Below are positions 37,162-63,461 of a stretch of 64,000 bases of DNA, piece by piece. The stretch comes from Aurantiacibacter luteus (lineage in GTDB: Bacteria > Pseudomonadota > Alphaproteobacteria > Sphingomonadales > Sphingomonadaceae). The stretch lies in NCBI RefSeq assembly GCF_001010945.1, contig NZ_LBHB01000001.1:1240001-1304000 (forward strand), written 5' to 3'. The translations under genes and the position numbers were made by a program. The stretch's first letter is position 1; each line of letters starts with the position of its first letter. The notes beneath the pieces are model-generated. The model worked only from the letters and a program-made list of their open reading frames with translations. It had not been told where the DNA came from and did no database searches.

Positions 37162-37172
37162 AAGTCAGACAA
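37162..37172. promoter_or_regulatory. Palindromic GntR-type operator in front of the GH42 operon
   Basis: AAGTCAGACAA matches nine of eleven positions of the consensus TTGTCNGACAA. It lies 19 bases before the GTG start of the GH42 gene, just upstream of its ribosome site (GGGAGG). The position suggests repression. Same motif family as at 46309, 46395, 52790, 54364, 59056 and 63451. Confidence 0.65.
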
Positions 37173-37191
37173 TTATGTTGGGAGGTTCAAA

Positions 37192-39291
37192 GTGCCATCG
37201 GGATTCGCAAAGATAGTCGCGCGGTTTGGTCTTCCGATGGCGGTCGCTGGCGTTGTGATGAGCGGCCCTGTCGCTGCACAGGATGGAAGCCGTCTGCCAG
37301 ACACGATCCTTTACGGTGTCGCCTATTATGACGAGTACACCCCCGTCGATCGCATCGACGAGGACTTTCGCCTCATGCGCGAGGCGAACATTTCTGTTGT
37401 CCGTATCGCTGAATCGACTTGGGGCACTCTCGAGCCGCAGCCCGGCGTCTTCGATTTCACCCATGTCGATCGCATGCTGGCCGCGGCGCAGGCCAACGGT
37501 ATCTCGGTTATCGTCGGCACGCCCACCTATGCCATCCCCACTTGGCTTGCGCGCGAACATCCCGACGTGCTCGTCACGCGTCCGGAGGGGCAGGCGCGCT
37601 TCGGCTATCGCCAGAACATGGACATCACCAACCCGCATTACCGCGAGGCGGCCGAACGTGTGATCCGCGCGCTCATTGCCCACGTGGCCGATCATCCCAG
37701 CGTTATCGGCTATCAGGTCGACAATGAGACCAAGGCCTACAACACTGCCGGGCCCAACGTGCAAGCAGCCTTCGTCGCGGCGATGCGCGAGCGTTTTACG
37801 CTCGACGAGTTGAACGATGCTTGGGGGCTGAACTACTGGAGCAACCGCATCAACAGCTGGGAGGATTTCCCCTCCACCACCGGCACGATGAATGCCAGCG
37901 TCGGCAATGCCTTTGCCGCGTTCCAGCGCGATCTGGTGACCGAATTCCTCGCCTGGCAAGCCGGCATCGTGCGCGAATATGCCCGCCCGGACCAATTCGT
38001 CACCCAGAACTTCGACCTCGGCTGGCGCGGACATTCCTATGGCGTCCAGCCGGAGGTAAACCACTGGGAGGCGGCCGAGGCGCTTGATGTCGCTGGCGTC
38101 GATATCTACCACCCGACGCAGGACGACCTTACTGGGGCCGAGATCGCCTTCGGCGGAGACCTCACCCGCTCGCTTCGCGACGGGCAGAACTACTTCGTCA
38201 TGGAAACAGAAGCGCAGGGTTTCCCCCAGTGGACGCCCTACCCAGGGCAATTGCGCCTTCAGGCTTTCAGCCACCTCGCCTCGGGCGCCGACATGCTCGC
38301 CTATTGGCACTGGGCGACGACGGCCAATGCCGTGGAAACTTATTGGCGCGGGCTGCTTGCGCAGGATTACCAGCCGAATGAACTTTACGAGGCCGCGCAG
38401 GGTATCGGCGCCGATATCGCGAGGCTCGGACCCGCGCTGCACGGCATGGAAAAACACAACCAGGTGGCGGTCTACGTCAGTAATGCCTCGCTGAGCGCGA
38501 TGGACTGGTTCCGCCTGCCCGGCAATAACGGCTACAACGAGGTGATGCGCCCGTTCTACGACGCGCTCTACCGCCAGAACATCGAGGCCGACATCATCTC
38601 CCCCGACGGCGAGGCGGACCTGTCGCAGTACCGCATGATCGTGGTGCCCGCGCTCTATGCCGCCAGCGACGAGGAGATCGAGCGGCTCAACGCATACGCG
38701 CGCGCCGGCGGGCATCTCGTCTACACCTTCAAGAGCGGCTTCTCCGACGAGAACACGCAGGTCCGATATGCCACGCAGCCCGGCGCGATCGCCGAGGCCG
38801 CGGGGGTCACCTACCAGACCTTCACCGAGCCGCAGGAGGTGTCGCTCGACACGCCGCTCTACGATCTGGAGGGTGAGGCGCTGAACGTGCGCTGGTGGAT
38901 GGAATTCCTCCATCCCACCACGGCCGAAGTGCTTGCCCGCTACAAACACCATTCCTGGCCTGACTATGCCGCGATCACGCGCAACAGTTACGGCGCTGGG
39001 GAGGTCACTTACATCGGTTTCATGCCCAGCGACGCGCTGATCGCCGGCCTCTTGGCCGATACGGCACATAGGGCCGGCGTCACTTGGCACGAGGATGCCG
39101 ACTGGCCATTGATTGTGCGCGAGGGCACGCTGAGAGACGGTAGCCGGGTGCGCTATTTGCTCAACTACTCGCGCGACGCGATTGCCGTCCCGGCAGACCT
39201 TCGCGGCGGAACCAGCCTGCTTTCCCAAGCCGACTTCCAGAACACCGATCTGGCGCCGTGGGGCGTCGCCATCATGCGCATAGAGGACTGA
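37192..39291 (+). CDS. Exported GH42 beta-galactosidase
   Basis: A 699-aa protein starting at GTG 37192 behind a strong GGGAGG ribosome site. A Sec signal peptide (residues about 1-30, cleaved near VAAQ) is followed by a GH42 TIM barrel. The acid/base is in YQVDNETKAYN (Glu179) and the nucleophile in YFVMETEAQGFPQW (Glu338). A trimerisation-type domain and a short C-terminal beta domain complete it. It removes terminal beta-galactose from galactans or arabinogalactan side chains, probably in the periplasm. First gene of the GH42-GH43-GH3 operon. Confidence 0.9.
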   Translation: MPSGFAKIVARFGLPMAVAGVVMSGPVAAQDGSRLPDTILYGVAYYDEYTPVDRIDEDFRLMREANISVVRIAESTWGTLEPQPGVFDFTHVDRMLAAAQANGISVIVGTPTYAIPTWLAREHPDVLVTRPEGQARFGYRQNMDITNPHYREAAERVIRALIAHVADHPSVIGYQVDNETKAYNTAGPNVQAAFVAAMRERFTLDELNDAWGLNYWSNRINSWEDFPSTTGTMNASVGNAFAAFQRDLVTEFLAWQAGIVREYARPDQFVTQNFDLGWRGHSYGVQPEVNHWEAAEALDVAGVDIYHPTQDDLTGAEIAFGGDLTRSLRDGQNYFVMETEAQGFPQWTPYPGQLRLQAFSHLASGADMLAYWHWATTANAVETYWRGLLAQDYQPNELYEAAQGIGADIARLGPALHGMEKHNQVAVYVSNASLSAMDWFRLPGNNGYNEVMRPFYDALYRQNIEADIISPDGEADLSQYRMIVVPALYAASDEEIERLNAYARAGGHLVYTFKSGFSDENTQVRYATQPGAIAEAAGVTYQTFTEPQEVSLDTPLYDLEGEALNVRWWMEFLHPTTAEVLARYKHHSWPDYAAITRNSYGAGEVTYIGFMPSDALIAGLLADTAHRAGVTWHEDADWPLIVREGTLRDGSRVRYLLNYSRDAIAVPADLRGGTSLLSQADFQNTDLAPWGVAIMRIED

Positions 39292-39293
39292 CC

Positions 39294-40403
39294 ATGCGCG
39301 CGCCGTTTTCCGCCTTGGCTGCGGCGGCACATCTTGCGGGCTGCGCTACCCTCCCCGCCGAGCCCCCAAACGGCGAGCCGCGACTGCAGATCGTGGAGAC
39401 GGTCAGCCCGACGGCAGCCGTGCGGCGCGAAGCGAGTGGCGAGCGCTCGGCCTACCTGATGAGCTATTTCAAGGACGCGACGCATTCGCTCTATTTTGCC
39501 ACGTCGCGGGACGGCTACATCTGGGCCGACATCAATAGCGGCGAACCCATCCTCTCCGGCTACGACATCGCCGACCAGCACGGCATCCGCGATCCGCACA
39601 TCATTCGCGGAGCGGACGGCGCCTTCTATCTGACGATGACCGACCTCCACATCTTCGGCCAGCGCGAGGGTTATCGCGATACCGAATGGGAGCGGCCGGG
39701 CGACCAGTATGGCTGGGGCAACAATCGCAACCTCGTCTTCATGAAATCCTACGACCTCGTACATTGGACCCATGCGCTGGTTCCCGTGTCGGAACTGTTC
39801 CCGCGCTACGCCAACGCCGGCAACATGTGGGCGCCGCAGAGCATCATGGACCCGGACAACGGACGGATGATGGTCTACTTCACCACGCGCGATGGGGCGA
39901 GCCCAAACTACATGGTCTCGTCCTACGCCAACGAGGCATTCGATACCCTGGCGACCGAGCCGCAGCAGATCCTCAACTATCCGGATCCCAGCGTAAATAC
40001 GATCGACGCGGACATCACCCGCGTGGGCGATACCTGGCATATGTTCTATGTCGCGCACGACGCGCCCGGGAACATCCGCGAGGCTCACTCGCAGTCGATC
40101 AACTCGGGCTACGTCACGGATCGCCAGAAGGTCGATCCGGAGGAGCGCGCCGCCGAGGCGCCAAATCTCTGGCGACGGTACGGCACCGACACCTACGTGC
40201 TGATGTACGACGTATTCGGCGTGGATCCGCACAACATGGGCTTTGCTGAAACCACCGACTTCGAGCACTTCACCAACCTCGGCCGCTTCAACGAGCCCGG
40301 ATCGCCGATGCGGACGACCAACTTTTCCTCTCCCAAGCACGGATCGGTCATGCCCATCACCCTCGCCGAGGCCGAGCGCGTCGAGCGCTGGTTCGCACGC
40401 TGA
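39294..40403 (+). CDS. GH43-family glycosidase, lipoprotein
   Basis: A 369-aa lipoprotein whose lipobox HLAGC puts the anchored Cys at residue 17. It is a five-bladed propeller of the GH43/62 clan with the conserved Asp of the first blade in QHGIRDPHIIRG, NMWAPQSIMDPDNGRMMVYF in the middle, and NTIDADITRVGDTWHMFYV further on. GH43 enzymes are alpha-L-arabinofuranosidases, beta-xylosidases or exo-beta-1,3-galactanases; the galactose/arabinose context favours the first or third. It starts two bases after the GH42 stop. Confidence 0.8.
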   Translation: MRAPFSALAAAAHLAGCATLPAEPPNGEPRLQIVETVSPTAAVRREASGERSAYLMSYFKDATHSLYFATSRDGYIWADINSGEPILSGYDIADQHGIRDPHIIRGADGAFYLTMTDLHIFGQREGYRDTEWERPGDQYGWGNNRNLVFMKSYDLVHWTHALVPVSELFPRYANAGNMWAPQSIMDPDNGRMMVYFTTRDGASPNYMVSSYANEAFDTLATEPQQILNYPDPSVNTIDADITRVGDTWHMFYVAHDAPGNIREAHSQSINSGYVTDRQKVDPEERAAEAPNLWRRYGTDTYVLMYDVFGVDPHNMGFAETTDFEHFTNLGRFNEPGSPMRTTNFSSPKHGSVMPITLAEAERVERWFAR

Positions 40404-40417: not shown

Positions 40418-43048
40418 ATGACCCGATCCCCGTTCCGAGCCGCCCTACTCGCCACTGCCATGCTGGTTCCTGTTGCGGCGCACGCGCAGGTCTATGCCGA
40501 TCCGGATGCGTCCATCGAGGAACGTGCCGCGGACTACGTCGCGCGCATGACGCTCGAGGAAAAGGCGCGGCAGATGCAAAACAGCGCACCCGCCATCCCC
40601 CGGCTCGACCTGCCGGCCTACGACTGGTGGAACGAGGGCCTGCACGGCCTCGCACGCGCCGGCGAGGCGACGGTATTTCCGCAGGCGATCGGCATGGCCG
40701 CGACCTGGGACCGCGAGCTGCTCCATGCCGAGGGGCGCGTCATCGGTACCGAGGCGCGCGCACGCTACAATCAGGCTCAGCGCGAGGGCAACACGGACCG
40801 GTACTTCGGTCTCACCATCTGGTCACCCAACATCAACATCTTCCGCGATCCGCGCTGGGGGCGCGGGCAGGAGACGCTGGGCGAAGACCCGTATCTCACC
40901 GGCGTGCTCGCGACGGCATTCGTACAAGGAATGCAGGGAGACGATCCCGATTACCGCCTCGCCATCGCCACACCCAAGCATTTCGCGGTCCACTCCGGCC
41001 CGGAACCGCTGCGCCACGAATTCGACGTCGATGTCGATCCGCAGGATCTCGCCGAGACCTATCTTCCCGCCTTCCGCCGCACCATGATCGAGGGCGACGC
41101 GGACTCACTGATGTGCGCCTACAACGCGGTCGATGGCGTTCCGGCCTGCGGCAGCAGTTTCCTGATGCAGGACATTCTGCGGGATGCCTGGGGATTCGAC
41201 GGTTTCGTCACCTCCGACTGCGGCGCGATCGAGGATTTCGTCAGCGGCCATCGCACCCACGAAGATCACGCCGCCGCGTCCGCCGCCTCGATCATCGCCG
41301 GCACTGATACCGGCTGCAACTTCCGCAACGAGTACTGGGCCATACCCGAGGCGGTCGAGCGCGGCCTGATCAGCGAAGAGCGTGTCGACGTGGCGATGCG
41401 GCGACTGATGGAAGCCCGATTGCGACTGGGGATGCTCGATCCGGCTGAGCGCGTGCCTTACGCTCAGATACCGATCACCGAGAACCACAGCGCTGCTCAT
41501 GCCGAGGTGGCGCTTCGGGCGGCGCGAGAATCCATCGTGCTGCTGGCAAACGACGGCATCCTGCCTCTGGCCGCCGACGGCAGGCGCTTGCTGGTAGTCG
41601 GTCCGGCCGCCGTTTCGCGCGAGGCGCTGAACGGCAATTACAAGGGTACGCCCGTCGGCCAGGCCCTCCCGCTCGATGGCATCATCGCAGCCTTCGGAGC
41701 CGGGAACGTCAGCTTCGCGCAGGGCTCGCCGTTCGTTGAGGAAGTTGGCCTGACAGTGCCACGCACCGTGTTCGGGCCCGCGGGCGTGCAGGCACGCTTC
41801 TGGAACGGTAACGGCTTTGCCGGCCCCGTGACCGCCACGACCACGCAGGCAGAGATCGACAACGACTGGAACGGCGTTGCGCCTGCACCCGGCGTCCAGC
41901 GCGAAGCCTTCAGCGCAGAGTTCACCGGCACGATCACCGTTCCCGCAGACGGCGAATACGTGTTCGCCGTCGGCGACCGGAAATGCGATTTTTCCGACGA
42001 TCACCAGAGCTACATACTCGCCATTGAAGGCTTCGAGACGCGGCGAGCCTGGGCGAGCTGCGGACAGGGCGTGCCGCTCTCGACAGAGCCGGTTTTCATG
42101 CGCGCTGGCGAGGCACACGCTTTCAGCCTTGCCTTTACCCATCGCTCGCCACGCTTGGGTGCCGGGCTGACGCTGACCTGGCGCCCACCGGCTGCCGCCC
42201 TGCTCGCCGAAGCGCGCGACGCCGCGCGCGATGCCGACGTGATCGTCGCGCTCGTCGGCCTGACCGCCGGGCTCGAGGGCGAGGAGATGCGTGTCGACGC
42301 CGAGGGCTTTCAGGGTGGCGACCGCTCCGACATCGCCCTCCCTGCCGTGCAGCGCGAGCTGCTCGAGGCGATGGAGGCCAGCGGCAAGCCGCTCATCATC
42401 GTCGGCCTGACCGGCTCGGCCGTCGCCTACGGGCAGGCGGGTGAGGATGCCGCCGCCTTGCTCCACGCATGGTATGGCGGCGAGGCGGGCGGACAGGCGA
42501 TCGGCGAGGTGCTGGCAGGCACCGTCAACCCCTCAGGTCGCCTCCCGGTCACCTTTTACCGTGGCCTCGACGACCTGCCGGCTTTCGACGACTACGCCAT
42601 GGATGGCCGCACCTATCGCTACTACACGGGGGCGCCGGAATTCGCGTTCGGCCATGGCCTTAGCTACACCAGCTTCGCCTATTCCAACCTTGTGCTCCCT
42701 AGCGAGACCAGGGCGGGCGAGCGCATGGATGTGTCGGTCGCGGTGACCAACACCGGCGCGCGCGCCGGCGACGAGGTCGTGCAGCTCTATCTCGAGCCGC
42801 TCGATCGGCCCGATCTCCCGCGTCGCTCGCTCAAGGGTTTTGCGCGCTTAGCGCTCGAGCCCGGAGAAAGCGGCATAGTCGGCTTTTCCCTCGTTCCGCG
42901 CGACTTGGCTTTTGCCGATGCCGCGGGCGCGATGCGTGTTCAGCCAGGACGGTATCGCCTGTGGGTTGGCGGTGGACAGGACGGCACCAGCGCACCCGGC
43001 TTGGCGGGCACGTTCACCATCACGGGTGAAGCTTCGCTACCCCGCTGA
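40418..43048 (+). CDS. Exported GH3 glycosidase with PA14 insertion
   Basis: An 876-aa protein with a signal peptide ending at AHAQ. The GH3 N-terminal barrel (about 30-330) includes LGEDPYLTG, TPKHFAVHSG and the nucleophile Asp267 in GFVTSDCGA. The GH3 C-terminal sandwich begins near residue 355 and is interrupted by a PA14 carbohydrate-binding-type domain (about 445-590, VQARFWNGNGF, GEYVFAVGDRKC). A fibronectin-III-like end follows. Relatives are beta-xylosidases, alpha-L-arabinofuranosidases or beta-glucosidases; WWNEGLHG near residue 70 is common in the xylosidase/arabinosidase group. Last gene of the plus-strand operon. Confidence 0.88.
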   Translation: MTRSPFRAALLATAMLVPVAAHAQVYADPDASIEERAADYVARMTLEEKARQMQNSAPAIPRLDLPAYDWWNEGLHGLARAGEATVFPQAIGMAATWDRELLHAEGRVIGTEARARYNQAQREGNTDRYFGLTIWSPNINIFRDPRWGRGQETLGEDPYLTGVLATAFVQGMQGDDPDYRLAIATPKHFAVHSGPEPLRHEFDVDVDPQDLAETYLPAFRRTMIEGDADSLMCAYNAVDGVPACGSSFLMQDILRDAWGFDGFVTSDCGAIEDFVSGHRTHEDHAAASAASIIAGTDTGCNFRNEYWAIPEAVERGLISEERVDVAMRRLMEARLRLGMLDPAERVPYAQIPITENHSAAHAEVALRAARESIVLLANDGILPLAADGRRLLVVGPAAVSREALNGNYKGTPVGQALPLDGIIAAFGAGNVSFAQGSPFVEEVGLTVPRTVFGPAGVQARFWNGNGFAGPVTATTTQAEIDNDWNGVAPAPGVQREAFSAEFTGTITVPADGEYVFAVGDRKCDFSDDHQSYILAIEGFETRRAWASCGQGVPLSTEPVFMRAGEAHAFSLAFTHRSPRLGAGLTLTWRPPAAALLAEARDAARDADVIVALVGLTAGLEGEEMRVDAEGFQGGDRSDIALPAVQRELLEAMEASGKPLIIVGLTGSAVAYGQAGEDAAALLHAWYGGEAGGQAIGEVLAGTVNPSGRLPVTFYRGLDDLPAFDDYAMDGRTYRYYTGAPEFAFGHGLSYTSFAYSNLVLPSETRAGERMDVSVAVTNTGARAGDEVVQLYLEPLDRPDLPRRSLKGFARLALEPGESGIVGFSLVPRDLAFADAAGAMRVQPGRYRLWVGGGQDGTSAPGLAGTFTITGEASLPR

Positions 43049-43236: not shown

Positions 43237-46200
43237 TCACTCGCCGAAGCGGAAGCGCAGGCCGGCGCCGAAGTACCGGCCCTCGTCACGCACGTCGATC
43301 GGGAAGGTCGCCTGTGAGGTATAGCCGACGAAGTTTCGGAACGGCCGCGCCAGGATGTTGGCGACGTCCGCGAATACGGTGAAGTTCGGCGTGATGTCGT
43401 AGCTGAAGTTCGCATCGAGGCGGTCGCGGGCCAGCGTACCGTTGCCAGTGTACTGGAAGCCGTTGTCCGGATCGGTGTTGTAACCGTTCACCCAGTCCGA
43501 CCGACGGTTATACGACAGGCGAGTGGTGATACCGTTGGCTTCGTAGAAAAGCGCCAAGTTGTAGGTCCACTCCGAGAGACCCGGGATGCGAACGTACTCT
43601 CCTTCGCCCTCAAAGACATCCGTTTCCGGGTTGTATCCGTTCGGGAGCCGGGTCTCGCCCTTCAGGTAGGTAACGTTGGCCGACACGCCGAATCCGCTGA
43701 AGGCATCGGGCAGGAAATCGTCGAGGAAGGTCTGGAAATTGACCTCAAAGCCCTCGATCCAGGAGTCAGCCGCATTTATCGGGCTGCTGAGTTGCAGGGT
43801 GCCATAGACCGGATCGTTCCTGAACCGAGTCACGCCGGTGGTGAAGCCGTAGATATCGCGGTAAAACGCCGCCACGCTCGCAAATCCCGTGCGCGAGAAA
43901 TAGTATTCCAGGCTCACGTCGTAGTTGTTCGAGGTGAAGGGCTGAAGCTCCGGATTACCCTGCGACCCGGTATAATCCGGGTAGGTTCGCCCGGGGATAC
44001 GGCAACTCGTCGTGTCGGTCGGATCGTAGTTCGGATCCGTCGATTCGAGGCAAGGCTGATAGATTACCGGGCGGATCTGGAGCGCGGGATTGAGCGCCCC
44101 GAAATCAGGCTTCGTGCGGGTCTGGGTGTATCCCAAGCGCAGTTGCAACTTATCGGTGAAGCGCGCACGAAGACTGATGTTGGGAAGCCAGTCGGTGTAA
44201 TTCTGGTACTCGGTCCGCGGCGTCAGCGTTTCGTCGCAGGAGTCGTCCGTCGGATTGTTCGGCGTCCCGCCATCGTTAAGCAGGCACACGGTAGAGATAC
44301 CAAAGGTGCTCCCGTCGGTGATGACGGCCCGGAGACCTGCGATACCGTCTACGCGCACCGCCCCAACGTCGAAATTCCAATGGGTCTGAAGGTAGGCAGC
44401 GTACGTATTTTCGTCACCCATCCAACCTGATGTCTCGGGAATCTGGATGTTCTCGGTCGAGAAATCCTCGATGAGACTGCTATAATAACCATTACCGGGG
44501 AACCGGGCCAACAGGTCCTGGGAGGTCTGCAGCGTGAATTGACGCAGGGCCTCCCGGTTATCATAAATCCCGCTCCGCGGTACGGACAGATAGGAGTTGA
44601 ATCCTACGTTATTACGGAACGGATTGATCGTTGGTGTCAACCCGCCAATGGGCAGGTCGGCCAGCGGGATACGTGCTTCCGATACATCGGCGTAACGGAA
44701 CCCGTTTTCGGTGAGCTCGCTGTGGCGCGTGGTTGCCCGAACGCCGAACTTGAGCCGCGGGAAATTGTCCCAGGGCGTATCCCAGCTCGCATCGGCACGG
44801 GCTTGCAGGCCGTCGCCACTCACGTCGTAACGGGCTTCGTAATAGCCGCGGAAAATGTATCCGGCCGGATCGAACGGGTCCCAGTCGGGGAAATTGAAAT
44901 CGACACCGCCGTTGGAATCGAAGGATGCATTCACGGTGCGAGCGCCGACCGTGCGGAAGTCGAGGCTGTAGTTGTCCCGCTGATAGCGACTCCAGCTATA
45001 GGCGACGTCGGCCGAAAGCGTCAGCGTATCGGTCGCATCCCAAATCGCGCCAGCAGCGACCTGATAGGTGTTCGTTTCGTCCTGCGTGGTATTGCGATAG
45101 CCCTGCGGATCGGAGCCGGACATCTTGGTCAGCGAGGCTGCCTGCGGCACTGTCGGATTGTCGCGATAAGGCGGGTCGTAGCCATCGAGAATGATCTGAT
45201 CGTACGACTGGCCGTCAAGCAGGACTACGTTGCTGAATACCGCCGGGGTCGAGTTGGGGCCCCAAGGCTCGAGCGGCACGTCGAAGTTATCAGCGAAGCC
45301 GCGTCCGCGGTAGCCTTGATAGACGCCCTCGACATAGAACTGCAGATCGTCGCTGGGTGCATACTGCGCAGCGAAATTGGCCGAGGGGCGGATGCGCTTG
45401 CCGCCGTCATTGTAGAGGCCGATGTTATTGGGGAAGAAGAACAGACCGTTCGGAAAGTCCGGCTGGTTGCGAACGTTCTGGCCCTGCGTCTCGATATCCG
45501 ACCAGTAGGAGTTCTGAATGAAGCTCGAGTTGTAGCGAGCGCCGTTGTAGTACTGCTGCTGCGCATAGGTGAAGTTGGCGAGGAAGCCGAACTCGCCGTC
45601 GCCCACGTCCCAACGATCGGAGAACAGGATGTTGCCATCGCCGTCGATCTTCTCGCTCTGGTCGTTGTAGGTGCCGTGGATGCCGCCGGCGATGACCTGG
45701 TCGGTGAAGTCGAACGGGCGCCGGGTGCGCACGTTGACCAAGCCCGCCAAGCCCGGCTCGATAATGTCGGCGGTGCCCGACTTGTAGACTTCGATCCCCG
45801 CCAGTGCCTGCGCCGGGAAATCCTGAAGCTGCACGCGGCGAAGTTCGGCTGTGAAGATTTCGCGGCCGTTGTAAGACGTGGCGACGTCGGGCAGGCCGCG
45901 GATGAGGATGCCGCTCGCCTCGTCGCTAAAGCGGTTGACCTGCACACCGGCGATACGGGCGATGGTTTCGGCTGCGGTGTTATCGGGCAGCTTGCCGATG
46001 TCCTCGGCGACGATCACGTCCATGATCGAATCGGATTCCCGCTTGATGCCCTGCGCTGATTCCAGACTGGCGCGGATGCCGGACACATAGATAGTCTCAC
46101 CCGGGTTGGCATCCGCCTCCTCAGGCGCCTCTGGCGAGGCATCTTCTTGCGCCTCGACGGCGGGATCGTCCTGATCGGTATCCTGGGCGTAGGCGGATTG

Positions 46201-52800: not shown

Positions 52801-52820
52801 TATAGATTTTGCCGTTCGGG

Positions 52821-55302: not shown

Positions 55303-57660
55303 TTAACCCTCGGGCTCCATCATGCGCACCTCGTAAAGTAGCGCATGCTCCCGCAGTGCGCGGACGCCGATGACAGCCTCGGCTCGCCCCTGTTCGCCGA
55401 CCGGGGGCAAGGAAAAGGAAAGGGTGACGAACCCGTCGCCCGGCGACGGCTCCGGCCAAGCCAATTCAAGCGGCGCGCCATCCACCGTTATGCCGAACGG
55501 ACGAGCGGCATCGGCACTGAACACCGTCACTTGCAGCACGGCGTCGCCCGGTCGGCGAGCCAGAGTCATGCGCATCTCGTCGCCGGGCGGCAGCCGCCGC
55601 GCGGCCCTGCCATTCCAGTTTACCACCTCGCTTCGGCCCGGAACGAAATCGTGGTCGCGCTCGGGTTGCATTTCGCCGAGATAGAGCGTGTCGACGGTCC
55701 GCCGGGACAGCGCCTGTGCAGCTTCTTGCGAGCGAATGTATTCACCCCGCCGCGCAGCCCATTCCGCCGAAGTAAAGGTGGGGAAGTAGACGGCGCTGCG
55801 CCGGTCGTACTGCCGGAAGAACGGTTTCAGAAAGAGCGTTTCCCCCAGCCCGCCCTCGGTCGTGAATACCCCGGATTTGGAGGCGGACCGCAACGCGGCG
55901 GCTGGATTGCCCTGCCCTGCGACGAGGACCGGGCCGGTGCCGACAAAGTCTTCGTCGGCCGGGCCAAGATCGGCAGCCAAGATCAGCGGCCCGCGGGTGA
56001 ACGCAAGGATCGAAGGGTCGTCAGGTACGCGCTCGACGCCCAGCGTCATGGGTAGGGTCAGGTCGACCGTATCGCCCACATCCCAAGGCCGCGTTATGCG
56101 AGAGTATCCGTCTGCCATCTCGGTTTCGACCGGCACGCCGTTCACGGCAATCTGCGGCGCGGCGCTCCAGGCGGGGATGCGCATGGCCAGCGTCGTCGCA
56201 CGAAGAGAGGGACGGCTCACGGATAACCGCACACTGCCTTCGTCTGGCATGGCGCTCGCCATGCGCCAGCCCAGCTCACGCTCCGGCCAGTCGAGCGACG
56301 AGGGAATGAACAGGTTAACGAAGAGCGTGCACGCCGCGGCGTCGTGCCACCAGATGGAATCGGCATGCTTGGCGTGGCTCTCCATTCCCGACCCCACGCA
56401 ACACCAGAAGCTGTCCTCGGGGTCCGAATATATGCGCCTGGCCCCTGCAGCGAGCGGCATGAAGTAGACAAAGCGGCCATTGTCGGGGCGTTGGTGCGCC
56501 ATTATGTGGTTGATCTGCGCCTGCTCGTAGAAATCAAACCACCGCGCATCGGGCTGCCAGCTGTACAAATGCCGGGTGAGCTTGAGCATGTTGTAGGTGT
56601 TGCATGCCTCGCACGTCGCCTCGCCGATGCGATGCGCGCGCTGGTCCGGTGGCCCGAAATGCTCGCGTTCCGAATTGCCGCCGATCACGTAGCTGTGATG
56701 CTGCGTCACGCGCTTGTGAAAGAATTGCGCGGCCCCTGCATAGCGCGCATCAGGTGCGACTTCGTGCAGACGCGCCAGGCCGATGACCTTGGGAATCTGC
56801 GTGTTGGCGTGCAGGCCTTCGAGCCGGTCCTCCTGCGCCACCAGCGGATCGAGCACGGCGCGGTGATAGATGCGCCGCGCCAGTCGCAGCCAGCGCCGGT
56901 TTCCGGTCAGCGCAAAGGTGTCGGCGTAGCTTTCGTTGAGACCGCCGTGCTCGGCGTGCAGAACCCGCTGCATCTGCTCGTCGTCGAGTGGCTCGAGCAC
57001 CTCGGCGAGATAGGTCGACATGCCCAGCAGGATCGGCATCGCCGACTGCCGTCTTGCGAGGCGATAGGCGTCGATAAGCCCGGCGTGGATCTTGTGCCAG
57101 GTGTAGAGCGGAACCCACCCACCGTTGAGATCGAAGCCTCCGCTGCGAATGTCGCCGCGGCGCACTTCTTCGAACACGATCTTGCCGTCCACGATCTCGC
57201 CGTCCCGCTCGACAGTCGTCCCACCGATGTAACCATCGCCGTGTGCCGACTGGATTTGGGCCATCTGCGCCAGCGCATGGTCGAGATTGGCAGCGAGTTC
57301 GACATCACCGGTATTGGCGACCAGCAACGAGACCGCGCTGAGCCAATGGCCGAGCGAGTGCCCGGCGATACCCATCGCCTCCCACCCGCCGTAGACCGGA
57401 GCGGGCGGCTCGAGCCCCGCGGATAGGTAGAAGTTGTGCAGCAAGCGCTCGGGATCGAGCGAGGCGAGATAACTGCGGTTGGCGGCCTGGGCGTCGGCAA
57501 AGATCGACGGCGCCAAACGCACCTTGTCGAGAGGAACAGGCTCGACGAGGGCTGTAAGATAACCGCCCGTCGCCGCTCGCAAGGCCCCCGCCGGGATGGT
57601 ACCGGCGAGGGCGAGCGAACTCACCCCCGCCAACCATCGACGGCGATCGACTTGCACCAT
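55303..57660 (-). CDS. GH127 beta-L-arabinofuranosidase, Tat-exported
   Basis: A 785-aa protein of the former DUF1680 family. The N-terminal VDRRRWLAGVSSLALAG is a twin-arginine signal. The (alpha/alpha)6 core carries the zinc/nucleophile set: Glu and Cys in ATCEACNTYN, and the Cys pair in FWCCVGSGMESHAK, matching the Glu-Cys3-zinc site of the Bifidobacterium enzyme, where the first Cys of the pair is the nucleophile. It removes beta-L-arabinofuranose. ATG 57660 is one base after the MFS gene's stop, so they are cotranscribed. Confidence 0.9.
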   Translation of the reverse strand: MVQVDRRRWLAGVSSLALAGTIPAGALRAATGGYLTALVEPVPLDKVRLAPSIFADAQAANRSYLASLDPERLLHNFYLSAGLEPPAPVYGGWEAMGIAGHSLGHWLSAVSLLVANTGDVELAANLDHALAQMAQIQSAHGDGYIGGTTVERDGEIVDGKIVFEEVRRGDIRSGGFDLNGGWVPLYTWHKIHAGLIDAYRLARRQSAMPILLGMSTYLAEVLEPLDDEQMQRVLHAEHGGLNESYADTFALTGNRRWLRLARRIYHRAVLDPLVAQEDRLEGLHANTQIPKVIGLARLHEVAPDARYAGAAQFFHKRVTQHHSYVIGGNSEREHFGPPDQRAHRIGEATCEACNTYNMLKLTRHLYSWQPDARWFDFYEQAQINHIMAHQRPDNGRFVYFMPLAAGARRIYSDPEDSFWCCVGSGMESHAKHADSIWWHDAAACTLFVNLFIPSSLDWPERELGWRMASAMPDEGSVRLSVSRPSLRATTLAMRIPAWSAAPQIAVNGVPVETEMADGYSRITRPWDVGDTVDLTLPMTLGVERVPDDPSILAFTRGPLILAADLGPADEDFVGTGPVLVAGQGNPAAALRSASKSGVFTTEGGLGETLFLKPFFRQYDRRSAVYFPTFTSAEWAARRGEYIRSQEAAQALSRRTVDTLYLGEMQPERDHDFVPGRSEVVNWNGRAARRLPPGDEMRMTLARRPGDAVLQVTVFSADAARPFGITVDGAPLELAWPEPSPGDGFVTLSFSLPPVGEQGRAEAVIGVRALREHALLYEVRMMEPEG

Positions 57661-57661
57661 G

Positions 57662-58996
57662 TCAGGCCAGGGTTTCGTCGGCCCCCTGCGCGGCGAGATT
57701 ACCTTCCGGCAGCGCATTGGTGGGCTTGGAGCCGTAGAGCGCGTACCAGAGCACGTAGACTTCGCAGGCTACAGTCAGCCAGAAGCTGGTCTGGAGACCA
57801 TAGGCATCCGCGAGCAGGCCTTGGATGGCCACCAGTGCGCCGCCGGCGATCGCCGTGATCAGCAGGCCCGAGCCTTCCTCGGTCAGCGGGCCCAGTCCCT
57901 TGATGCCCAGCGCAAAGATCGCCGGGAACATGATCGAATGGCCAAGCCCGACAAGGATCAGGCACCACAGCGCAAGCTGTCCCTGCAGGGTCGCCGCGCC
58001 GATCATTACTACCATGGCGAACAAGGCAAAGCAGGCGAGCACGCGGCTCGGACTGAAGCGACTCATCAAATAACTGCCGGCAAACCGTCCGACCATCATG
58101 CCGCCCCACATCATCGTGAGATACTTCGCCGCATCGGCGGGCGTGATCCCGCCGATTTCCGGCAGGATGGCGAAGTTGATGAAGAGGTTGGCAACGCCGA
58201 TTTCAGCGATCAGGTAAATGAAGATCGCCGGAATGCCGTAGACCAGATTCTTGTGCGACCACAGCGACAGCTTCTTGCGCTCTTCGCGATTGGCCTTGCG
58301 GGTGCTTTCGCCCATCTGCGGAAGGTTGGCGCGCCAGATGATGAAGACGATGATTGCGAGGACGATCGCGACGAGCAGGTAGGGCAGCTGTGTCGCCTGA
58401 GCGTCCGCGATGCGTTCCGCAGCGGTCAGCTCGGTCCCGGCCAGCGAGGTGCCGCCGGTGGTTCGCGAAAGGATGAGGTAGCCGCCGAAATAGGGCGCGA
58501 AGAACGTGCCCATCGAGTTGAAGGCCTGCACCAGCGTGAGGCGCGATTCCGAACTCTCCGCCGGTCCGATGACCGCCACGTAGGGGTTGGCCGCGACCTG
58601 CAGGAGGGTAATTCCGCTCGCAATGACGAAAAGCGAGATCAGCGTGACCGGATAGGAGATCAGCTCCGCCGCGCCGATCATGCCGAGCGCGCCGAGCGCC
58701 ATCACCGTCAGTCCGATGATCAGTGCCTTCTTGTAACCGATGCGCTCGATCAGGAAGGCCGAAGGCATACCCATCACGCCATAGGCGATGAACCAGACCG
58801 ATTCGATGACGGTCGTCTGGAAGTAGTTGAGCTCGAAGACGCTGCGCAGATGCGGCAGGAGCGTTCCGTTGATGACGGTGATGAAGCCCCACATGAAGAA
58901 CAAGCTGGCGAGCAGCGCCAGCGCCCTGCCGTACGGCTGTGTCGCTCCACCGGACGCAGGCGCGACACGGGCACTGGTATTTGTTGGCACTGGCAT
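57662..58996 (-). CDS. MFS sugar permease, FucP/GluP-like (glucose/galactose transporter)
   Basis: A 444-aa protein with 12 predicted membrane segments. It begins LASLFFMWGFITVINGTLLPHL, the family opening of FucP/GluP-type proton-sugar symporters, and includes LLQVAANPYVAVIGP and LVQAFNSMGTFFAPYFGGYL, the NP and FNS-x-G motifs of that family. It carries released galactose or arabinose into the cytoplasm. Start 58996 is supported by GGGAG upstream. It precedes the GH127 gene by one base and is divergent from the mutarotase. Confidence 0.9.
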   Translation of the reverse strand: MPVPTNTSARVAPASGGATQPYGRALALLASLFFMWGFITVINGTLLPHLRSVFELNYFQTTVIESVWFIAYGVMGMPSAFLIERIGYKKALIIGLTVMALGALGMIGAAELISYPVTLISLFVIASGITLLQVAANPYVAVIGPAESSESRLTLVQAFNSMGTFFAPYFGGYLILSRTTGGTSLAGTELTAAERIADAQATQLPYLLVAIVLAIIVFIIWRANLPQMGESTRKANREERKKLSLWSHKNLVYGIPAIFIYLIAEIGVANLFINFAILPEIGGITPADAAKYLTMMWGGMMVGRFAGSYLMSRFSPSRVLACFALFAMVVMIGAATLQGQLALWCLILVGLGHSIMFPAIFALGIKGLGPLTEEGSGLLITAIAGGALVAIQGLLADAYGLQTSFWLTVACEVYVLWYALYGSKPTNALPEGNLAAQGADETLA

Positions 58997-59055: not shown

Positions 59056-59066
59056 ATGTCTGACTA
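59056..59066. promoter_or_regulatory. Palindromic GntR-type operator between MFS and mutarotase genes
   Basis: ATGTCTGACTA keeps the TGTC/GAC core of TTGTCNGACAA and is flanked by GATA on the left and TATC on the right, extending the symmetry. It lies midway in the 130-bp divergent gap, 59 bases from each start codon, suited to control both directions. Confidence 0.65.
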
Positions 59067-59126: not shown

Positions 59127-60278
59127 ATGACAAAAGTGTACAAATGGGCGGCGCTGGCGCTTGCGTCACTGGCGCATGGGGCCCTGGCGGCCGCGTCGAG
59201 CGCTTCCACGGCAGAGCGCGGCACCTTCGATCGCCTGCCATCGGGCGAAGCAGTCGAGGCGGTGACGCTCACCGGCACGAACGGTGTCAGTGCCAAGATT
59301 ATCACCTTCGGCGCCACCTTGCAGGAATTCAACGTGCCCGACCGCGAGGGGCGCGTCGCCGACATAACCATCGGGCATGACAACATCGCCGCCTATCTCG
59401 AAACACCCAACTACTGGGGCCAGACGATCGGGCGTTACGCCAACCGCATCGCCGGTGGGCGCTTCTCGCTCGACGGACGGAACTACCAGCTCACGCTCAA
59501 TAATGGCGTCAATTCGCTCCACGGCGGGGCCGAGGGTTGGGATATGCGCAACTGGCGCATCGTGTCGGTCGATGAAGACGGGCCGGTTGCGAGCGTCACC
59601 CTCGCTCTTAGCAGCCCCAACGGCGACCAAGGCTATCCCGGCACCGTAAATGCGCGCGTGACCTACAGTCTCGACGACCGCGGGTCGCTCACCATTGCCT
59701 TCGAGGCGACGACCGATGCGCCGACCATCATCAACATGACGAACCATGCGCTGTTCAATCTGGGCGGCGAGGGTTGGCCTTACGGCACCTACGACCAGCG
59801 CCTGACCATCCCCGCCAGCCAATACCTGCCGGTGGACGCGACGCTGATTCCCACCGGAGAGCGCCGCGGAGTGGAAGGCACAGTCTTCGACTTCCGCAAT
59901 GGCCGCATGATGTACGACGGCGTTCGCGACGGAGCGGACGAACAGATCGTGCTCGGTCACGGATGGGATCACAACTGGATCCTCGACAAGGGTCGAACGG
60001 CGCGCCCCGAACTCGCGGCGCGGGTCGAGCATACGCTTTCCGGCCGTGTCCTCGAGGTGCTGTCCACCGAACCGGGCCTGCAATTCTATTCGGGAAACTT
60101 CCTCGTCGGCGAACTGGTCGGCGAAGACAATTTGGTGTTCCGGATGGGCGACGGGATCGCGCTGGAGCCACAGCTTTTCCCGGATACACCCAATCAGTCC
60201 GATTTCGGGTCAGCGCGGCTTGATCCCGGACAGACCTATCGCCACACGATGATCTACCGCGTTTCCGTCGCGGGCTGA
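59127..60278 (+). CDS. galM: Exported aldose 1-epimerase (mutarotase)
   Basis: A 383-aa GalM-family beta-sandwich with an N-terminal signal peptide (ALALASLAHGALAAASS). It has TFGATLQEFNVPDREG, YWGQTIGRYANRIAGG and NNGVNSLHGG (His), NMTNHALFNLGG (His), and WDHNWIL (the Glu/His-containing end). It equilibrates alpha and beta anomers of released galactose in the periplasm, so the permease or 1-dehydrogenase receives the right form. ATG 59127 is preferred over 59100 because GGGAAGGGG lies upstream and the signal peptide starts there. It is 13 bases before the dehydratase gene. Confidence 0.88.
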   Translation: MTKVYKWAALALASLAHGALAAASSASTAERGTFDRLPSGEAVEAVTLTGTNGVSAKIITFGATLQEFNVPDREGRVADITIGHDNIAAYLETPNYWGQTIGRYANRIAGGRFSLDGRNYQLTLNNGVNSLHGGAEGWDMRNWRIVSVDEDGPVASVTLALSSPNGDQGYPGTVNARVTYSLDDRGSLTIAFEATTDAPTIINMTNHALFNLGGEGWPYGTYDQRLTIPASQYLPVDATLIPTGERRGVEGTVFDFRNGRMMYDGVRDGADEQIVLGHGWDHNWILDKGRTARPELAARVEHTLSGRVLEVLSTEPGLQFYSGNFLVGELVGEDNLVFRMGDGIALEPQLFPDTPNQSDFGSARLDPGQTYRHTMIYRVSVAG

Positions 60279-60291: not shown

Positions 60292-62094
60292 ATGTCCGCG
60301 TCCCCCTCGCCCGGATCGAAGCTGCGCAGCCGCGCCTGGTTCGACAACCCGGACAATGCCGACATGACTGCTCTCTATCTCGAGCGGTACATGAACTTCG
60401 GGCTTACCCTTGAAGAGCTGCAAAGCGATAAGCCGATCATCGGCATCGCCCAGACCGGCAGCGATCTTTCGCCCTGCAACCGTCACCACATCGTATTGGC
60501 CGAGCGCGTGCGCGAGGGCATTCGCGAGGCAGGCGGCATCGCCATCGAATTTCCCGTCCATCCTATCCAGGAGACTGGCAAGCGGCCGACAGCGGGGCTG
60601 GATCGCAACCTTTCCTATCTTGGCCTGGTCGAAGTGCTTTACGGCTATCCCCTCGATGGCGTGGTGCTGACGATCGGCTGCGACAAAACGACACCGGCCA
60701 TGCTGATGGGCGCGGCAACGGTGAATATCCCGGCAATCGCGCTCTCCGTCGGGCCCATGCTCAATGGCTATTTCAAGGGCGAACGCACGGGATCGGGCAC
60801 GATCGTCTGGAAGGCGCGTGAGCTACTGGCCTCGGGCGAAATCGACTACCAGGGCTTTATCCGCCTCGTCGCGTCCTCGGCCCCTTCGACCGGCTATTGC
60901 AACACGATGGGCACGGCGACCACGATGAATTCGCTGGCCGAGGCGCTGGGCATGTCGCTTACCGGATCGGCAGCCATTCCCGCGCCGTACAGGGATCGGC
61001 AGGAAGTAGCCTACCACACCGGCAAGCGCGCAGTGGAACTGGTGAACGAGGACGTCAAACCCTCGGACATCATGACCAAGGATTCCTTCGCCAACGCCAT
61101 CCGCGTCAATACCGCCATCGGCGGTTCGACCAACGCGCCGATCCACCTGGCGGCGATCGCCCGCCACATCGGTGTCGATCTCGACATCCGCGAGTGGGAA
61201 ACGTTGGGGCTCGACATTCCACTGCTGGTGAACATGCAGCCGGCGGGCGAATATCTCGGCGAGGACTACTACCGTGCCGGCGGCGTCTGTGCCGTGGTGG
61301 GCCAGCTCATCAAGCAGGGCTTGATCGCGGAGAACGCCATGACGGTTAACGGCAAGACCATCGGCGAGAACTGTCGGGGTGTCGAGATCGAGGACGAGCG
61401 GGTCATCCGGCCCTTCGACAATCCGCTGCGCCCAGCGGCGGGCTTCGTCGTGCTCTCGGGCAACCTGTTCGATTCCGCAATCATGAAGACCAGCGTGATC
61501 TCAGAGGAATTTCGCGGCCGCTACCTGTCCAACCCCGATGACCCGGATGCGTTCGAGGGAACCGCAGTAGTGTTCGACGGGCCCGAGGAATACCACGCCA
61601 AGATCGACGATCCTGCTCTCGGCATCACGCCAGAAACGATCCTGTTTATTCGCGGCGTGGGCCCGGTGGGCTATCCGGGCAGCGCCGAGGTGGTGAACAT
61701 GCGCCCGCCGACCTACCTGCTGAGCGAAGGGGTTCATGCCCTGCCTTGCGTGGGCGACGGTCGGCAATCAGGGACCAGCGGTAGTCCCTCGATCCTCAAC
61801 GCCAGCCCCGAAGCTGCCGCCGGCGGCGGCCTCGCCCTGTTACGGACCGGCGACCGTATCCGCATCGATCTTCGCGCGAAGACCGCCAACATGCTTGTCT
61901 CCGACGAGGATCTGGCCGAGCGACAGCGGCAGCTGGAAGCCGATGGCGGTTACAGCTATCCCGCGAGCCAAACTCCGTGGCAGGAAATCCAGCGCAATTA
62001 TGTAGGACAAATGTCGTCGGGTGCGATCCTTGAGGGTGCGGAGAAATTTCAGCGCATCGCCCAGGAACGAGGTTTGCCGCGCGACAGCCACTAG
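60292..62094 (+). CDS. IlvD/Edd-family aldonate dehydratase (arabonate/galactonate dehydratase)
   Basis: A 600-aa iron-sulfur dehydratase of the IlvD/Edd family, pentonate/hexonate group ([11 protein letters not shown] opening as in L-arabonate dehydratases). The cluster ligands are Cys in SPCNRHH, Cys in [10 protein letters not shown] and Cys in [11 protein letters not shown]. The Mg/phosphate-type site [13 protein letters not shown] and [13 protein letters not shown] follow. It removes water from arabonate and probably galactonate to give the 2-keto-3-deoxy acid, linking the lactonase to AraD1 and DgoK. It is in an operon with the mutarotase. Confidence 0.88.
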
Positions 62095-62616: not shown

Positions 62617-62631
62617 GATGCTCCTCCCCGA

Positions 62632-63393
62632 TTACCCGGCCAGAGCCGCCTGCGTGTCGCGTTCAGCGTTGACGATCAACTCGACAGTTACCTCGCGCGC
62701 CCTTGGGCCGTCGCCGCCGGCGATAGCTTCGAAGAGGGCGCGATGTTCCTCTATGGGGTCGCGCGGACACTTCGACTGTCGATATTTAAAATAGGTGGTC
62801 CAACGTACGGCCGCGCCGATGCTGGCCGACAGGTTGACCAGCAGTTCGTTATCGGTCGCCTCAAGAATGGCCGCATGAAATTCCTGATCGGCGAGCTGGC
62901 CTTCGGCCGTGGACAGCTTGTAGCGGGCCATCTCCTCGATCGCGTGACCCATCACCGCAAGTTGGCGGGCCGTCTTCTTCTTGGCCGCAAGTTCCGCCGC
63001 CGCCGGTTCGACGATCAGGCGCAGCTCGAACAGGCTCTGCACGAATTTTGGCGGCGGCGCGGCCTCGAACATCCATTCGAGCAGCGTCGGGTCGAGCAGA
63101 TGCCAGGAATCGCGATCCTTGATCCGCGTGCCGATCTTCGGCTTGCTCTCGATCAGGCCGCGCGCGGACAGCATCCGCAGCGCCTCGCGCACCACGCTGC
63201 GCGAGATCCCGAACTTCTCGGCAATCTCGATCTCGCCGGGCAGAATGTCTCCGGGCTGGTGCTGCCCGGTGACGATTGCCACGCCGAGATCGCGCGAAAT
63301 CTTGACGTGCGATGGCTCTTTCTTGGTGGCGGGCACAGATGCCTCCCAGGTTTGCATGACTAATCCGCCGGGATCTATGAGCCTTGCAGCCAT
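62632..63393 (-). CDS. FadR-subfamily GntR repressor of the galactose/arabinose locus
   Basis: A 253-aa protein. The winged helix is about residues 28-95 (HVKISRDLGVAIVTGQ, GEIEIAEKFGISRSVVREALRML, ARGLIESKPKIGTRI), followed by a helical FCD effector domain of the FadR type with metal ligand candidates (ELRLIVEPAA, DQEFHAAILEAT, EEHRALFEAI). In-frame ATG 63357 is a possible start. Members bind palindromes of the TTGTNNNACAA kind and release on a sugar acid. The palindrome at 63451 between this gene and GH2, plus six like it across the locus, make it the likely regulator. Confidence 0.88.
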   Translation of the reverse strand: MAARLIDPGGLVMQTWEASVPATKKEPSHVKISRDLGVAIVTGQHQPGDILPGEIEIAEKFGISRSVVREALRMLSARGLIESKPKIGTRIKDRDSWHLLDPTLLEWMFEAAPPPKFVQSLFELRLIVEPAAAELAAKKKTARQLAVMGHAIEEMARYKLSTAEGQLADQEFHAAILEATDNELLVNLSASIGAAVRWTTYFKYRQSKCPRDPIEEHRALFEAIAGGDGPRAREVTVELIVNAERDTQAALAG

Positions 63394-63450
63394 GGGGAAG
63401 CAACCTTTTTCAGCGCCGTTTGACGCTTGACGTTTGGACGAGTCAGTATA

Positions 63451-63461
63451 TTGTCAGACAA
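63451..63461. promoter_or_regulatory. Perfect palindromic GntR-type operator between GntR and GH2 genes
   Basis: TTGTCAGACAA is a perfect inverted repeat (TTGTC/GACAA) around one central base, the best copy in the window. It is 33 bases before the GH2 start and 58 bases before the GntR start, fitting control of GH2 and autoregulation of GntR. Confidence 0.75.

What the first reader, a model, noticed from the sequence alone, without database searches (positions are those of the whole stretch)
37162..63461. Seven-site palindrome regulon (TTGTCNGACAA) covering the whole sugar locus
Copies lie at 37162, 46309, 46395, 52790, 54364, 59056 and 63451, in front of every transcription unit between 37 and 64 kb: GH42 operon, TonB receptor (two), dgoK operon, aldehyde dehydrogenase/lactonase, MFS/mutarotase and GntR/GH2. 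I saw no such site before the genes left of 37 kb. A FadR-type GntR gene lies beside the only perfect copy. I infer one regulator for enzymes, receptor, permease and both oxidative pathways.
Basis: partly seen in the sequence, partly recalled or inferred. Interest (0 to 1): 0.75.

Follow-up and report, generated by a model that had tools for sequence, protein, structure and literature searches.

The report
One repressor switch for arabinogalactan genes
A bacterium appears to use one sugar-acid-sensing repressor protein to switch on, together, the genes for importing, cutting up and burning an arabinose-galactose polysaccharide; the DNA sites it would grip are kept in another genus, but binding has not been shown.

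Summary
The seven sites are real and look functional. Only 63451 is a perfect TTGTCNGACAA; six of seven fit WWGTCWGACWW, found at 7 places in the 2.89-Mb genome, 6 of them here. The seventh (52790) is a variant: TTGTANGACAA has 2 places in the genome, 52790 and an eighth site right of the window. A genome of another genus (G283) keeps the gene order and a site at each of the seven places. Counting all palindromes around relatives' gntR genes, window and G283 left out, ranks TTGTC-N-GACAA first of 3191. GntR and the arabinose gene araD1 occur together in 57 of 65 genomes holding either. At dgoK, GH2 and MFS the operator overlaps a predicted -10 box, which points to repression. Best explanation: a local regulon of an FCD/FadR-type GntR repressor, DgoR-like in its metal site but not its sugar contacts, over arabinogalactan uptake, hydrolysis and oxidation of D-galactose and L-arabinose. 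Binding, effector and sign are not shown, and a sister group of GntR homologues lacks the motif. New member of a known kind.

The parts
37162..37172 (.). operator 1 (AAGTCAGACAA), 19 nt before the GTG of the GH42 operon
   Evidence: site at the equivalent place in G283 (L078:7169), 9 of 11 identical, though a blind alignment did not pair them
37133..37161 (+). predicted promoter of the GH42 operon, TTGACC-N17-TAGATA, abutting operator 1
   Evidence: consensus scan, (prediction)
37192..39291 (+). GH42 beta-galactosidase
   Evidence: PF02449 E 1e-79
39258..40403 (+). glycoside hydrolase, distantly like an alpha-arabinofuranosidase
   Evidence: no Pfam match; NF052546, 88.8 bits, below cut-off 500
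40418..43048 (+). GH3 glycosidase with PA14 domain
   Evidence: Pfam
43237..46257 (-). TonB-dependent receptor (TonB-Xanth-Caul type)
   Evidence: TIGR01782, 562 bits, cut-off 310; start with ribosome-binding site
46309..46319 (.). operator 2 (TTGTCTGACTT), 51 nt before the receptor gene
   Evidence: 11 of 11 identical in G283
46395..46405 (.). operator 3 (TAGTCAGACAA), 137 nt before the receptor gene, 86 nt from operator 2
   Evidence: 9 of 11 identical in G283, 84 nt apart there
46519..47994 (-). GH30, closest solved relative an endo-beta-1,6-galactanase
   Evidence: PF14587; 24td E 1e-45
47991..49427 (-). GH27 (alpha-galactosidase family)
   Evidence: PF16499, PF17801
49328..50290 (-). D-galactose / L-arabinose 1-dehydrogenase (GFO/IDH/MocA)
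   Evidence: 4ew6 E 3e-105, 6jnj E 3e-98, 7cgq E 2e-97
50269..51387 (-). [quoted passage not shown]
   Evidence: NF040903, 498 bits, cut-off 340; reaction recalled; no solved relative
51261..52091 (-). 2-keto-3-deoxy-6-phosphogalactonate aldolase
   Evidence: NF006600, 271 bits, cut-off 207
51881..52768 (-). dgoK, 2-keto-3-deoxygalactonokinase
   Evidence: PF05035 E 1e-82
52790..52800 (.). operator 4 (TTGTAGGACAA, variant), 21 nt before dgoK
   Evidence: G283 has TTGTAAGACAA at the same place, 10 of 11 identical
52797..52825 (-). predicted dgoK promoter CTTGAC-N17-TATTGT, -10 box running into operator 4
   Evidence: prediction
52821..54350 (-). aldehyde dehydrogenase, possibly for alpha-ketoglutarate semialdehyde
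   Evidence: PF00171; 3v4c E 3e-145; substrate inferred from the pathway
54364..54374 (.). operator 5 (AAGTCTGACAA) between the divergent dehydrogenase (13 nt) and lactonase (49 nt) genes
   Evidence: 9 of 11 identical in G283
54424..55299 (+). SMP-30/gluconolactonase-family lactonase
   Evidence: PF08450 E 3e-68
55303..57717 (-). GH127 beta-L-arabinofuranosidase
   Evidence: PF07944 E 3e-125
57662..58996 (-). MFS permease, glucose/galactose (GluP/FucP) type
   Evidence: TIGR01272, 268 bits, cut-off 203; start
59056..59066 (.). operator 6 (ATGTCTGACTA) midway between divergent MFS (59 nt) and mutarotase (60 nt) genes
   Evidence: 11 of 11 identical in G283
59127..60278 (+). aldose 1-epimerase (mutarotase)
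   Evidence: PF01263; start
60292..62094 (+). IlvD/EDD-family galactonate / arabonate dehydratase
   Evidence: 7m3k galactonate dehydratase, 1063 bits
62632..63393 (-). GntR regulator, FCD (FadR) type; the start may be 63357
   Evidence: PF00392 + PF07729; nearest solved chain 7c7e E 1e-33, named DgoR in PMC7674646
63426..63454 (+). predicted GH2 promoter CTTGAC-N17-TATTGT, -10 box running into operator 7
   Evidence: prediction
63451..63461 (.). operator 7 (TTGTCAGACAA, perfect) between gntR and GH2
   Evidence: 10 of 11 identical in G283
63494..64000 (+).
   Evidence: reading frame; family name taken from the finding, not scanned with Pfam here

Best explanation
The sites are operators of the FCD/FadR-type GntR protein encoded at 62632-63393. 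As a dimer it would grip the palindrome (T/A)(T/A)GTC-N-GAC(A/T)(A/T), or the variant TTGTA-N-GACAA, placed at several promoters over or just downstream of the -10 box, and so keep off RNA polymerase. A sugar acid made from D-galactose and/or L-arabinose (aldonate or 2-keto-3-deoxy acid) would bind the metal-containing FCD pocket and release it. One signal then opens the receptor, the permease, seven glycosidase genes in the window with more beyond it, and both oxidative branches, which would share dehydrogenase, lactonase and dehydratase. Shown by sequence: the sites, their conservation, their placement, the link to this GntR clade. Inferred: binding, repression, effector, substrate (arabinogalactan with beta-1,6-galactan).
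For: WWGTCWGACWW: 6 of 7 genome places in the locus; TTGTANGACAA: 2 of 2. G283 has a site at each of the 7 places; an alignment that knew nothing of the motif paired 6 of the 7; identity over the 7 pairs is 0.90 in the 11-mer, 0.61 in flank 1-5, 0.33 in 6-12 and 0.35 in 13-60. TTGTC-N-GACAA ranks 1 of 3191 observed palindromes in 42 stretches around relatives' gntR, window and G283 left out: 14 against 0.31 expected; in the 13 stretches (12 genomes) with GntR 53% identical or more against 0.08. There 18 of 82 upstream regions hold a match of 9/10 or better against 1 of 82 in the reversed control, rank 1 of 1024 arms. GntR and AraD1: 57 both, 3 and 5 single, 233 neither of 298 genomes. CTTGAY-N17-TATTGT has 2 places in the genome, the dgoK and GH2 operators (control 0). 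AlkR, an FCD GntR of P. aeruginosa, footprints on ATTGTCAGACAAT, whose core equals operator 7 (PMC12042122, passages). FadR-subfamily sites have GT and AC 3 nt apart (PMC4494728, passages).
Against: No binding or expression data. The consensus as first written is not enriched in the genome (53 against 56 control), and WWGTCWGACWW in total is not rare (7 against 4; 1-14 in the genus). The G283 partners were found by motif, so identity in the core is partly by construction, and one (GH42) was not paired by the blind alignment. Of 14 motif matches in 60 kb of G283, 5 are not at operator places, four of them inside genes. In the 19 family stretches with a 45-52% GntR the palindrome is not enriched (1 against 0.15 perfect; 7 of 120 regions against 3); in the same-genus 45-50% group it ranks only 9 of 1367. 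Site 46395 lies 137 nt upstream and does not fit simple occlusion. Promoter-like scores over 25 contexts were only modestly above shuffles (7.5 against 6.1), and the -10 overlap was seen in 2 of 28 contexts at relatives' perfect sites, one of them weak.
Confidence: 0.83

Rival explanations
1. Another transcription factor, not the linked GntR, binds the sites.
For: No binding test. The palindrome core is also bound by an FCD regulator of another pathway, AlkR, in P. aeruginosa, so other GntR paralogues could read it. One homologue at 30% identity was found in the genome (C20:58445, E 2e-9).
Against: The palindrome is enriched next to gntR orthologues, sits in the gntR/GH2 gap, and had no 9/10 match in 5 stretches (72 kb in all) with araD1 but no gntR hit at the cut-off; GntR and AraD1 co-occur.
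Confidence: 0.09
2. GntR binds but activates, or activates some promoters (for example the receptor, with two sites) and represses others.
For: Operator 3 is 137 nt upstream of the receptor gene, a distance open to activation or looping; operators 2 and 3 are 86 nt apart, 84 in G283. At ALDH, SGL and the receptor no -10 overlap was predicted.
Against: Six of seven operators lie 13-60 nt before at least one start codon; the -10 box overlaps the operator with the same geometry at dgoK, GH2 and MFS in both genomes.
Confidence: 0.15
3. The conserved 11-mers are promoter sequences (-10 region) kept for RNA polymerase, the palindrome being incidental.
For: TATTGT and TATAGT are plausible -10 boxes.
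Against: Both arms are kept, including the GACAA arm away from the -10 box, and even the positions where the pattern allows A or T on that side (10, 11) are the same in 7 of 7 pairs; CTTGAY-N17-TATTGT is found at no other place in the genome.
Confidence: 0.03
4. Chance cluster in a GC-rich genome.
For: The loose consensus gives many hits.
Against: Sites at all seven places in G283 and out-of-sample enrichment.
Confidence: 0.01

Closest known systems
DgoR of E. coli (GntR/FadR repressor of D-galactonate metabolism)
   Same: nearest solved relative by sequence (7c7e, E 1e-33); metal residues D146/H150/H195 and R102 kept in the query and in 44 of 44 homologues; locus holds dgoK and aldolase genes; DgoR represses by two inverted repeats overlapping the promoter (PMC12288454, PMC7674646, passages)
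   Different: six further residues near the docked galactonate (Q173, R179, W181, D184, T191, S221) are V, F, Y, R, P, A here; the regulon would cover a receptor, many glycosidases and an arabinose branch
AlkR of P. aeruginosa SJTD-1 (GntR/VanR, FCD)
   Same: DNase I footprint ATTGTCAGACAAT contains operator 7 exactly; its site covers -10 regions too (PMC12042122, passages)
   Different: controls alkane-degradation genes and responds to long-chain acyl-CoA (same passages)
AraR2 (GntR family) of Halomonas, predicted regulator of L-arabinonate utilisation
   Same: GntR family, predicted by the same kind of comparative work over an oxidative arabinose pathway with several sites (PMC5507952, passages)
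   Different: Halomonas with ABC and TRAP transport; no glycosidases or TonB receptor in the passages seen; its motif is in a supplement I did not see
Polysaccharide utilisation loci of Bacteroidota
   Same: receptor, glycosidases and catabolism in one cluster (recalled)
   Different: no SusD-like match among the 20 reading frames scanned with Pfam between 34 and 64 kb; a local GntR in place of the regulators usual there (recalled)

Membership tests
FadR (FCD) subfamily of GntR regulators | N-terminal GntR winged helix-turn-helix (PF00392) | tested here: met
   E 2e-17, 62.9 bits, cut-off 27
FadR (FCD) subfamily of GntR regulators | C-terminal FCD domain (PF07729) | tested here: met
   E 1e-22, 81 bits, cut-off 24.3
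FadR (FCD) subfamily of GntR regulators | palindromic operator with GT and AC 3 nt apart | tested here: met
   GTC-N-GAC in 6 of 7 sites, GTA-N-GAC in 52790; definition from PMC4494728 (passages). That the protein binds them is untested.
FadR (FCD) subfamily of GntR regulators | binds a small carboxylate that changes DNA binding | not testable with these tools
   needs protein
DgoR orthologue | metal-site residues D146, H150, H195, and R102 | tested here: met
   D169, H173, H217, R125; 44 of 44 homologues
DgoR orthologue | other residues near docked D-galactonate (Q173, R179, W181, D184, T191, S221) | tested here: not met
   0 of 6 kept in the query; R224 fell outside the alignment
DgoR orthologue | responds to D-galactonate | not testable with these tools
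   needs protein
AlkR | operator ATTGTCAGACAAT | tested here: met
   11-mer core identical at 63451
AlkR | controls alkane oxidation genes | tested here: not met
   the genes beside the sites are sugar genes; alkane genes elsewhere in the genome were not looked for
De Ley-Doudoroff D-galactose pathway | galactose dehydrogenase, lactonase, galactonate dehydratase, KDGal kinase, KDPGal aldolase | tested here: met
   five genes by homology in the locus; activities untested; step list recalled
Oxidative L-arabinose pathway to alpha-ketoglutarate | arabinose dehydrogenase, lactonase, arabonate dehydratase, KDA dehydratase, KGSA dehydrogenase | tested here: inconclusive
   dehydrogenase and AraD1 by homology; dehydratase nearest to galactonate dehydratase and below the arabinonate dehydratase cut-off; the aldehyde dehydrogenase misses the cut-off of each of the 25 NCBIfam families shown of 35

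The most novel reading that the evidence does not exclude
A single repressor reads one shared sugar-acid signal (such as L-arabonate, D-galactonate or a 2-keto-3-deoxy acid) through a DgoR-type metal site with a re-made pocket, and thereby switches a whole locus, from outer-membrane receptor to central metabolism, for a mixed C5/C6 polymer, in place of two sugar-specific regulators; related GntR clades of the family run the same pathway with a different operator.
Probability: 0.4. Interest if true: 0.55.

Novelty: new member of a known kind. Interest (0 to 1): 0.42.

Why it matters
It gives a testable operator, regulator and gene list for arabinogalactan use in the group of Aurantiacibacter and Qipengyuania (orthologous gntR loci). 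The listings of six paper searches showed no title or abstract reporting such a regulon. It also offers a natural experiment: how a DgoR-like pocket changes ligand, and how GntR clades change operator while keeping the same pathway.

Tried and rejected
Consensus as first written: too loose to separate the locus from the rest of the genome. Free-centre WWGTCNGACWW: 24 places against 27 control, so the A/T centre matters in this genome, although relatives have C or G there at gntR (L032, L035). The only WWGTCWGACWW outside the locus (C11:502063) falls on the start codon of an acetyltransferase reading frame; I treat it as coding chance. Helix-turn-helix residues do not separate clades with and without the palindrome: VV- and AY-type recognition helices both occur with it. 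The five genomes with araD1 but no gntR hit are a weak control: three of the stretches were short (8 to 13 kb), L124 has two distant GntR-like matches (34 and 30%), and one genome was 73% complete. The genome searches score only part of the candidates (up to 9 a genome, 7), so hits may be missed, and the co-occurrence count ignores phylogeny. In one search the GH42 upstream alignment did not pair the two sites; I paired them by motif and place. P-values are inflated by codon structure (GATCG-type palindromes also score high), so I rely on rank, observed over expected, and the reversed control, where divergent genes share regions. By matches of 8/10 or better TTGTC ranks 13, 8 and 86 of 1024 in the three groups (39 of 82 against 6, 31 of 62 against 14, 33 of 120 against 19). 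Rows left out: L046 and L047 (33-34% GntR, no match), L013 and L014, and neighbouring stretches without gntR (L031, L033, L034, L048). Of 59 other genomes with a GntR hit I fetched the 29 best-scoring. In one search the GH2 query was empty through an off-by-one start, mended. No structure was predicted; AraD1 had no solved relative.
Full report
What was checked. The window is bases 1,240,001-1,304,000 of contig C1 of a 2,887,216-base genome. Its genus holds G021 and G020, whose contigs match those of Aurantiacibacter xanthus and A. suaedae by length and place; Qipengyuania algicida has a further gntR orthologue. Written as TTGTCNGACAA with mismatches they are not convincing: 30 hits with up to two mismatches in the window against 13.4 in shuffles and 53 hits with up to one mismatch in the genome against 56 for the reversed pattern. 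But six of the seven share WWGTCWGACWW, which has 7 places in the genome, six inside the locus. The total is ordinary for the genus (1 to 14 in 37 genomes); the clustering is not: the chance that 6 of 7 fall in a 36-kb stretch is 3e-11, a figure made after the fact, since the pattern came from the sites.

The odd site and an eighth one. Site 52790 is TTGTAGGACAA. The exact pattern TTGTANGACAA occurs at 2 places in the genome: this one and C1:1313106, 9 kb right of the window, between divergent genes for a GH43 and for a nucleoside-hydrolase-like protein (below the Pfam cut-off) followed by GH29. In G283 the same gap holds TTGTCCTACAA, the same variant on the other strand, and the dgoK gap holds TTGTAAGACAA. 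So the variant is real and the regulon probably runs past the window: GH2 (63494-66715), GH51, two GH43, a DUF481 protein, an HpcH/HpaI aldolase, then GH43 and GH29.

Phylogenetic footprint. G283 belongs to another genus of the family and carries the same gene order from GH42 to GH2 and on to GH29, with GntR 79% identical; its GH3 is a fragment, and no match to DUF481 or the aldolase was seen between its GH43 genes. Each of the seven sites has a partner at the same place. I found the partners by motif, which partly fixes their core; but an alignment blind to the motif paired six of the seven, all but GH42. Over the seven ungapped pairs identity is 0.90 in the 11-mer (positions 3-5 and 7-11 the same in 7 of 7, the centre in 2 of 7), 0.61 in the five bases on each side, 0.33 in the next seven and 0.35 further out. 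Of 14 motif matches in 60 kb of G283, nine are at operator places (the seven, a third receptor-gene site at L078:14033, and the eighth); four lie inside genes and one (L078:5784) was not placed. A. suaedae has sites before gntR, in the mutarotase/MFS gap, before the aldehyde dehydrogenase and, weaker, before a TonB receptor gene.

Out-of-sample test. I counted all exact palindromes with 5-base arms and spacers 0-7 in 42 stretches (830,702 bases) around gntR homologues, leaving out the window and G283. TTGTC-N-GACAA ranked first of the 3191 observed (14 in 13 stretches, 0.31 expected). By group: GntR 53% identical or more (13 stretches, 12 genomes) 9 against 0.08, rank 1 of 1596; same genus, 45-50% (10 stretches) 4 against 0.08, rank 9 of 1367; other family members, 45-52% (19 stretches) 1 against 0.15, rank 681 of 2267. 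In upstream regions of homologous genes, matches of 9/10 or better were 18 of 82 (reversed control 1; rank 1 of 1024 arms), 6 of 62 (control 0; rank 7) and 7 of 120 (control 3; rank 33). The motif thus belongs to a clade of this GntR, not to all its homologues. Across 298 family genomes GntR (E up to 1e-45) and AraD1 (E up to 1e-90) occur together in 57, alone in 3 and 5, neither in 233; this ignores phylogeny and the limits of the search. The five AraD1-only stretches (72 kb) had no match of 9/10 or better.

What the genes do. The plain reading is a type II arabinogalactan locus whose two sugars, D-galactose and L-arabinose, share the first three enzymes and then split (inference). The arabinose branch is less certain: the aldehyde dehydrogenase reaches no NCBIfam cut-off among the 25 families shown.

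How it probably works. The regulator has GntR and FCD domains and its nearest solved relative is 7c7e, which PMC7674646 names as DgoR (passages). The DgoR metal residues D146, H150, H195 and the pocket residue R102 correspond to D169, H173, H217 and R125 and are invariant in 44 of 44 homologues, while six other residues near the docked galactonate are all different here. So a sugar acid held by a metal is likely; galactonate held in the DgoR way is not. Operators lie 13-60 nt before at least one start codon, except 46395 at 137 nt. At dgoK and GH2 the sequence reads CTTGAC-N17-TATTGT with the -10 box running into the operator; CTTGAY-N17-TATTGT has 2 places in the genome, these two (control 0). 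MFS has TTGACC-N16-TATAGT with the same overlap, and the geometry recurs at all three in G283. Elsewhere it is less clear: over the 25 site-and-direction contexts of the two genomes the mean promoter-like score was 7.5 against 6.1 in shuffles, and at 14 perfect sites of other relatives (28 contexts) the overlap was seen twice, well in G110 and weakly in A. xanthus. This favours repression by promoter occlusion and release by an intermediate, at least for those three promoters.

Against what is known. FadR-subfamily operators have GT and AC three bases apart (PMC4494728, passages), as here. AlkR of P. aeruginosa, another FCD regulator, protects ATTGTCAGACAAT over its -10 regions (PMC12042122, passages): same DNA word, other pathway. 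Halomonas AraR2 is a predicted GntR regulator of arabinonate use (PMC5507952, passages); I did not see its motif. PMC5343134 (passages) names no galactose or arabinose regulator among the GntR ones shown. Six searches, for the site letters, DgoR/galactonate/GntR, arabinogalactan loci with GntR, Sphingomonadales sugar regulons and related terms (listings only, of which 23, 44 and 66 were cut at 20 of 23, 12 of 15 and 10 of 18), showed no report of this regulon. RegPrecise itself was not searched and could hold it, and most subscription papers are not in the library.

Verdict. The finding stands and is stronger than its author could know, but it is a good example of a known kind of thing: a local GntR repressor with many operators over one catabolic locus.

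Noticed in passing
C1:1313106-1313116 (position 73106 on the window's scale; L029:9106): An eighth operator, variant TTGTATGACAA on the minus strand, between divergent GH43 and nucleoside-hydrolase-like/GH29 genes; same variant in the same gap of G283.
   Followed up: yes
L029:46-11773 (right of the window): The glycan locus goes on: GH2, GH51, GH43 twice, DUF481, HpcH/HpaI aldolase, GH43, GH29. The aldolase could give a second way to split a 2-keto-3-deoxy acid.
   Followed up: partly
L013:3607-3636: In an Oscillospiraceae MAG two near-matches, TTGTCTGATAA and TTGTCTGACTA, lie 19 bases apart about 80-110 bases before a 33%-identical GntR match, beside a distant IlvD homologue: perhaps the same operator type far from this family.
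   Followed up: no
L078:14033 (G283) against window about 46282: G283 has a third, perfect site before the receptor gene; the aligned window stretch looks like a decayed copy.
   Followed up: partly
L078:10534-10893 (G283): GH3 is only a fragment in G283 (residues 6-128 at 48%) although the window has it whole.
   Followed up: no
L090-L108: Nineteen family stretches, most with the same pathway genes, and a 45-52% GntR show no enrichment of the palindrome; their operator is unknown and may differ.
   Followed up: partly
L036 and L032 (A. xanthus, G021): One genome carries both a 77% and a 47% GntR; its AraD1 lies on the contig of the second one (C132), its dgoK beside the first.
   Followed up: no
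window 34138-36204: A glycosyltransferase joined to a sucrose-phosphate phosphatase domain just left of the locus, without an operator.
   Followed up: no
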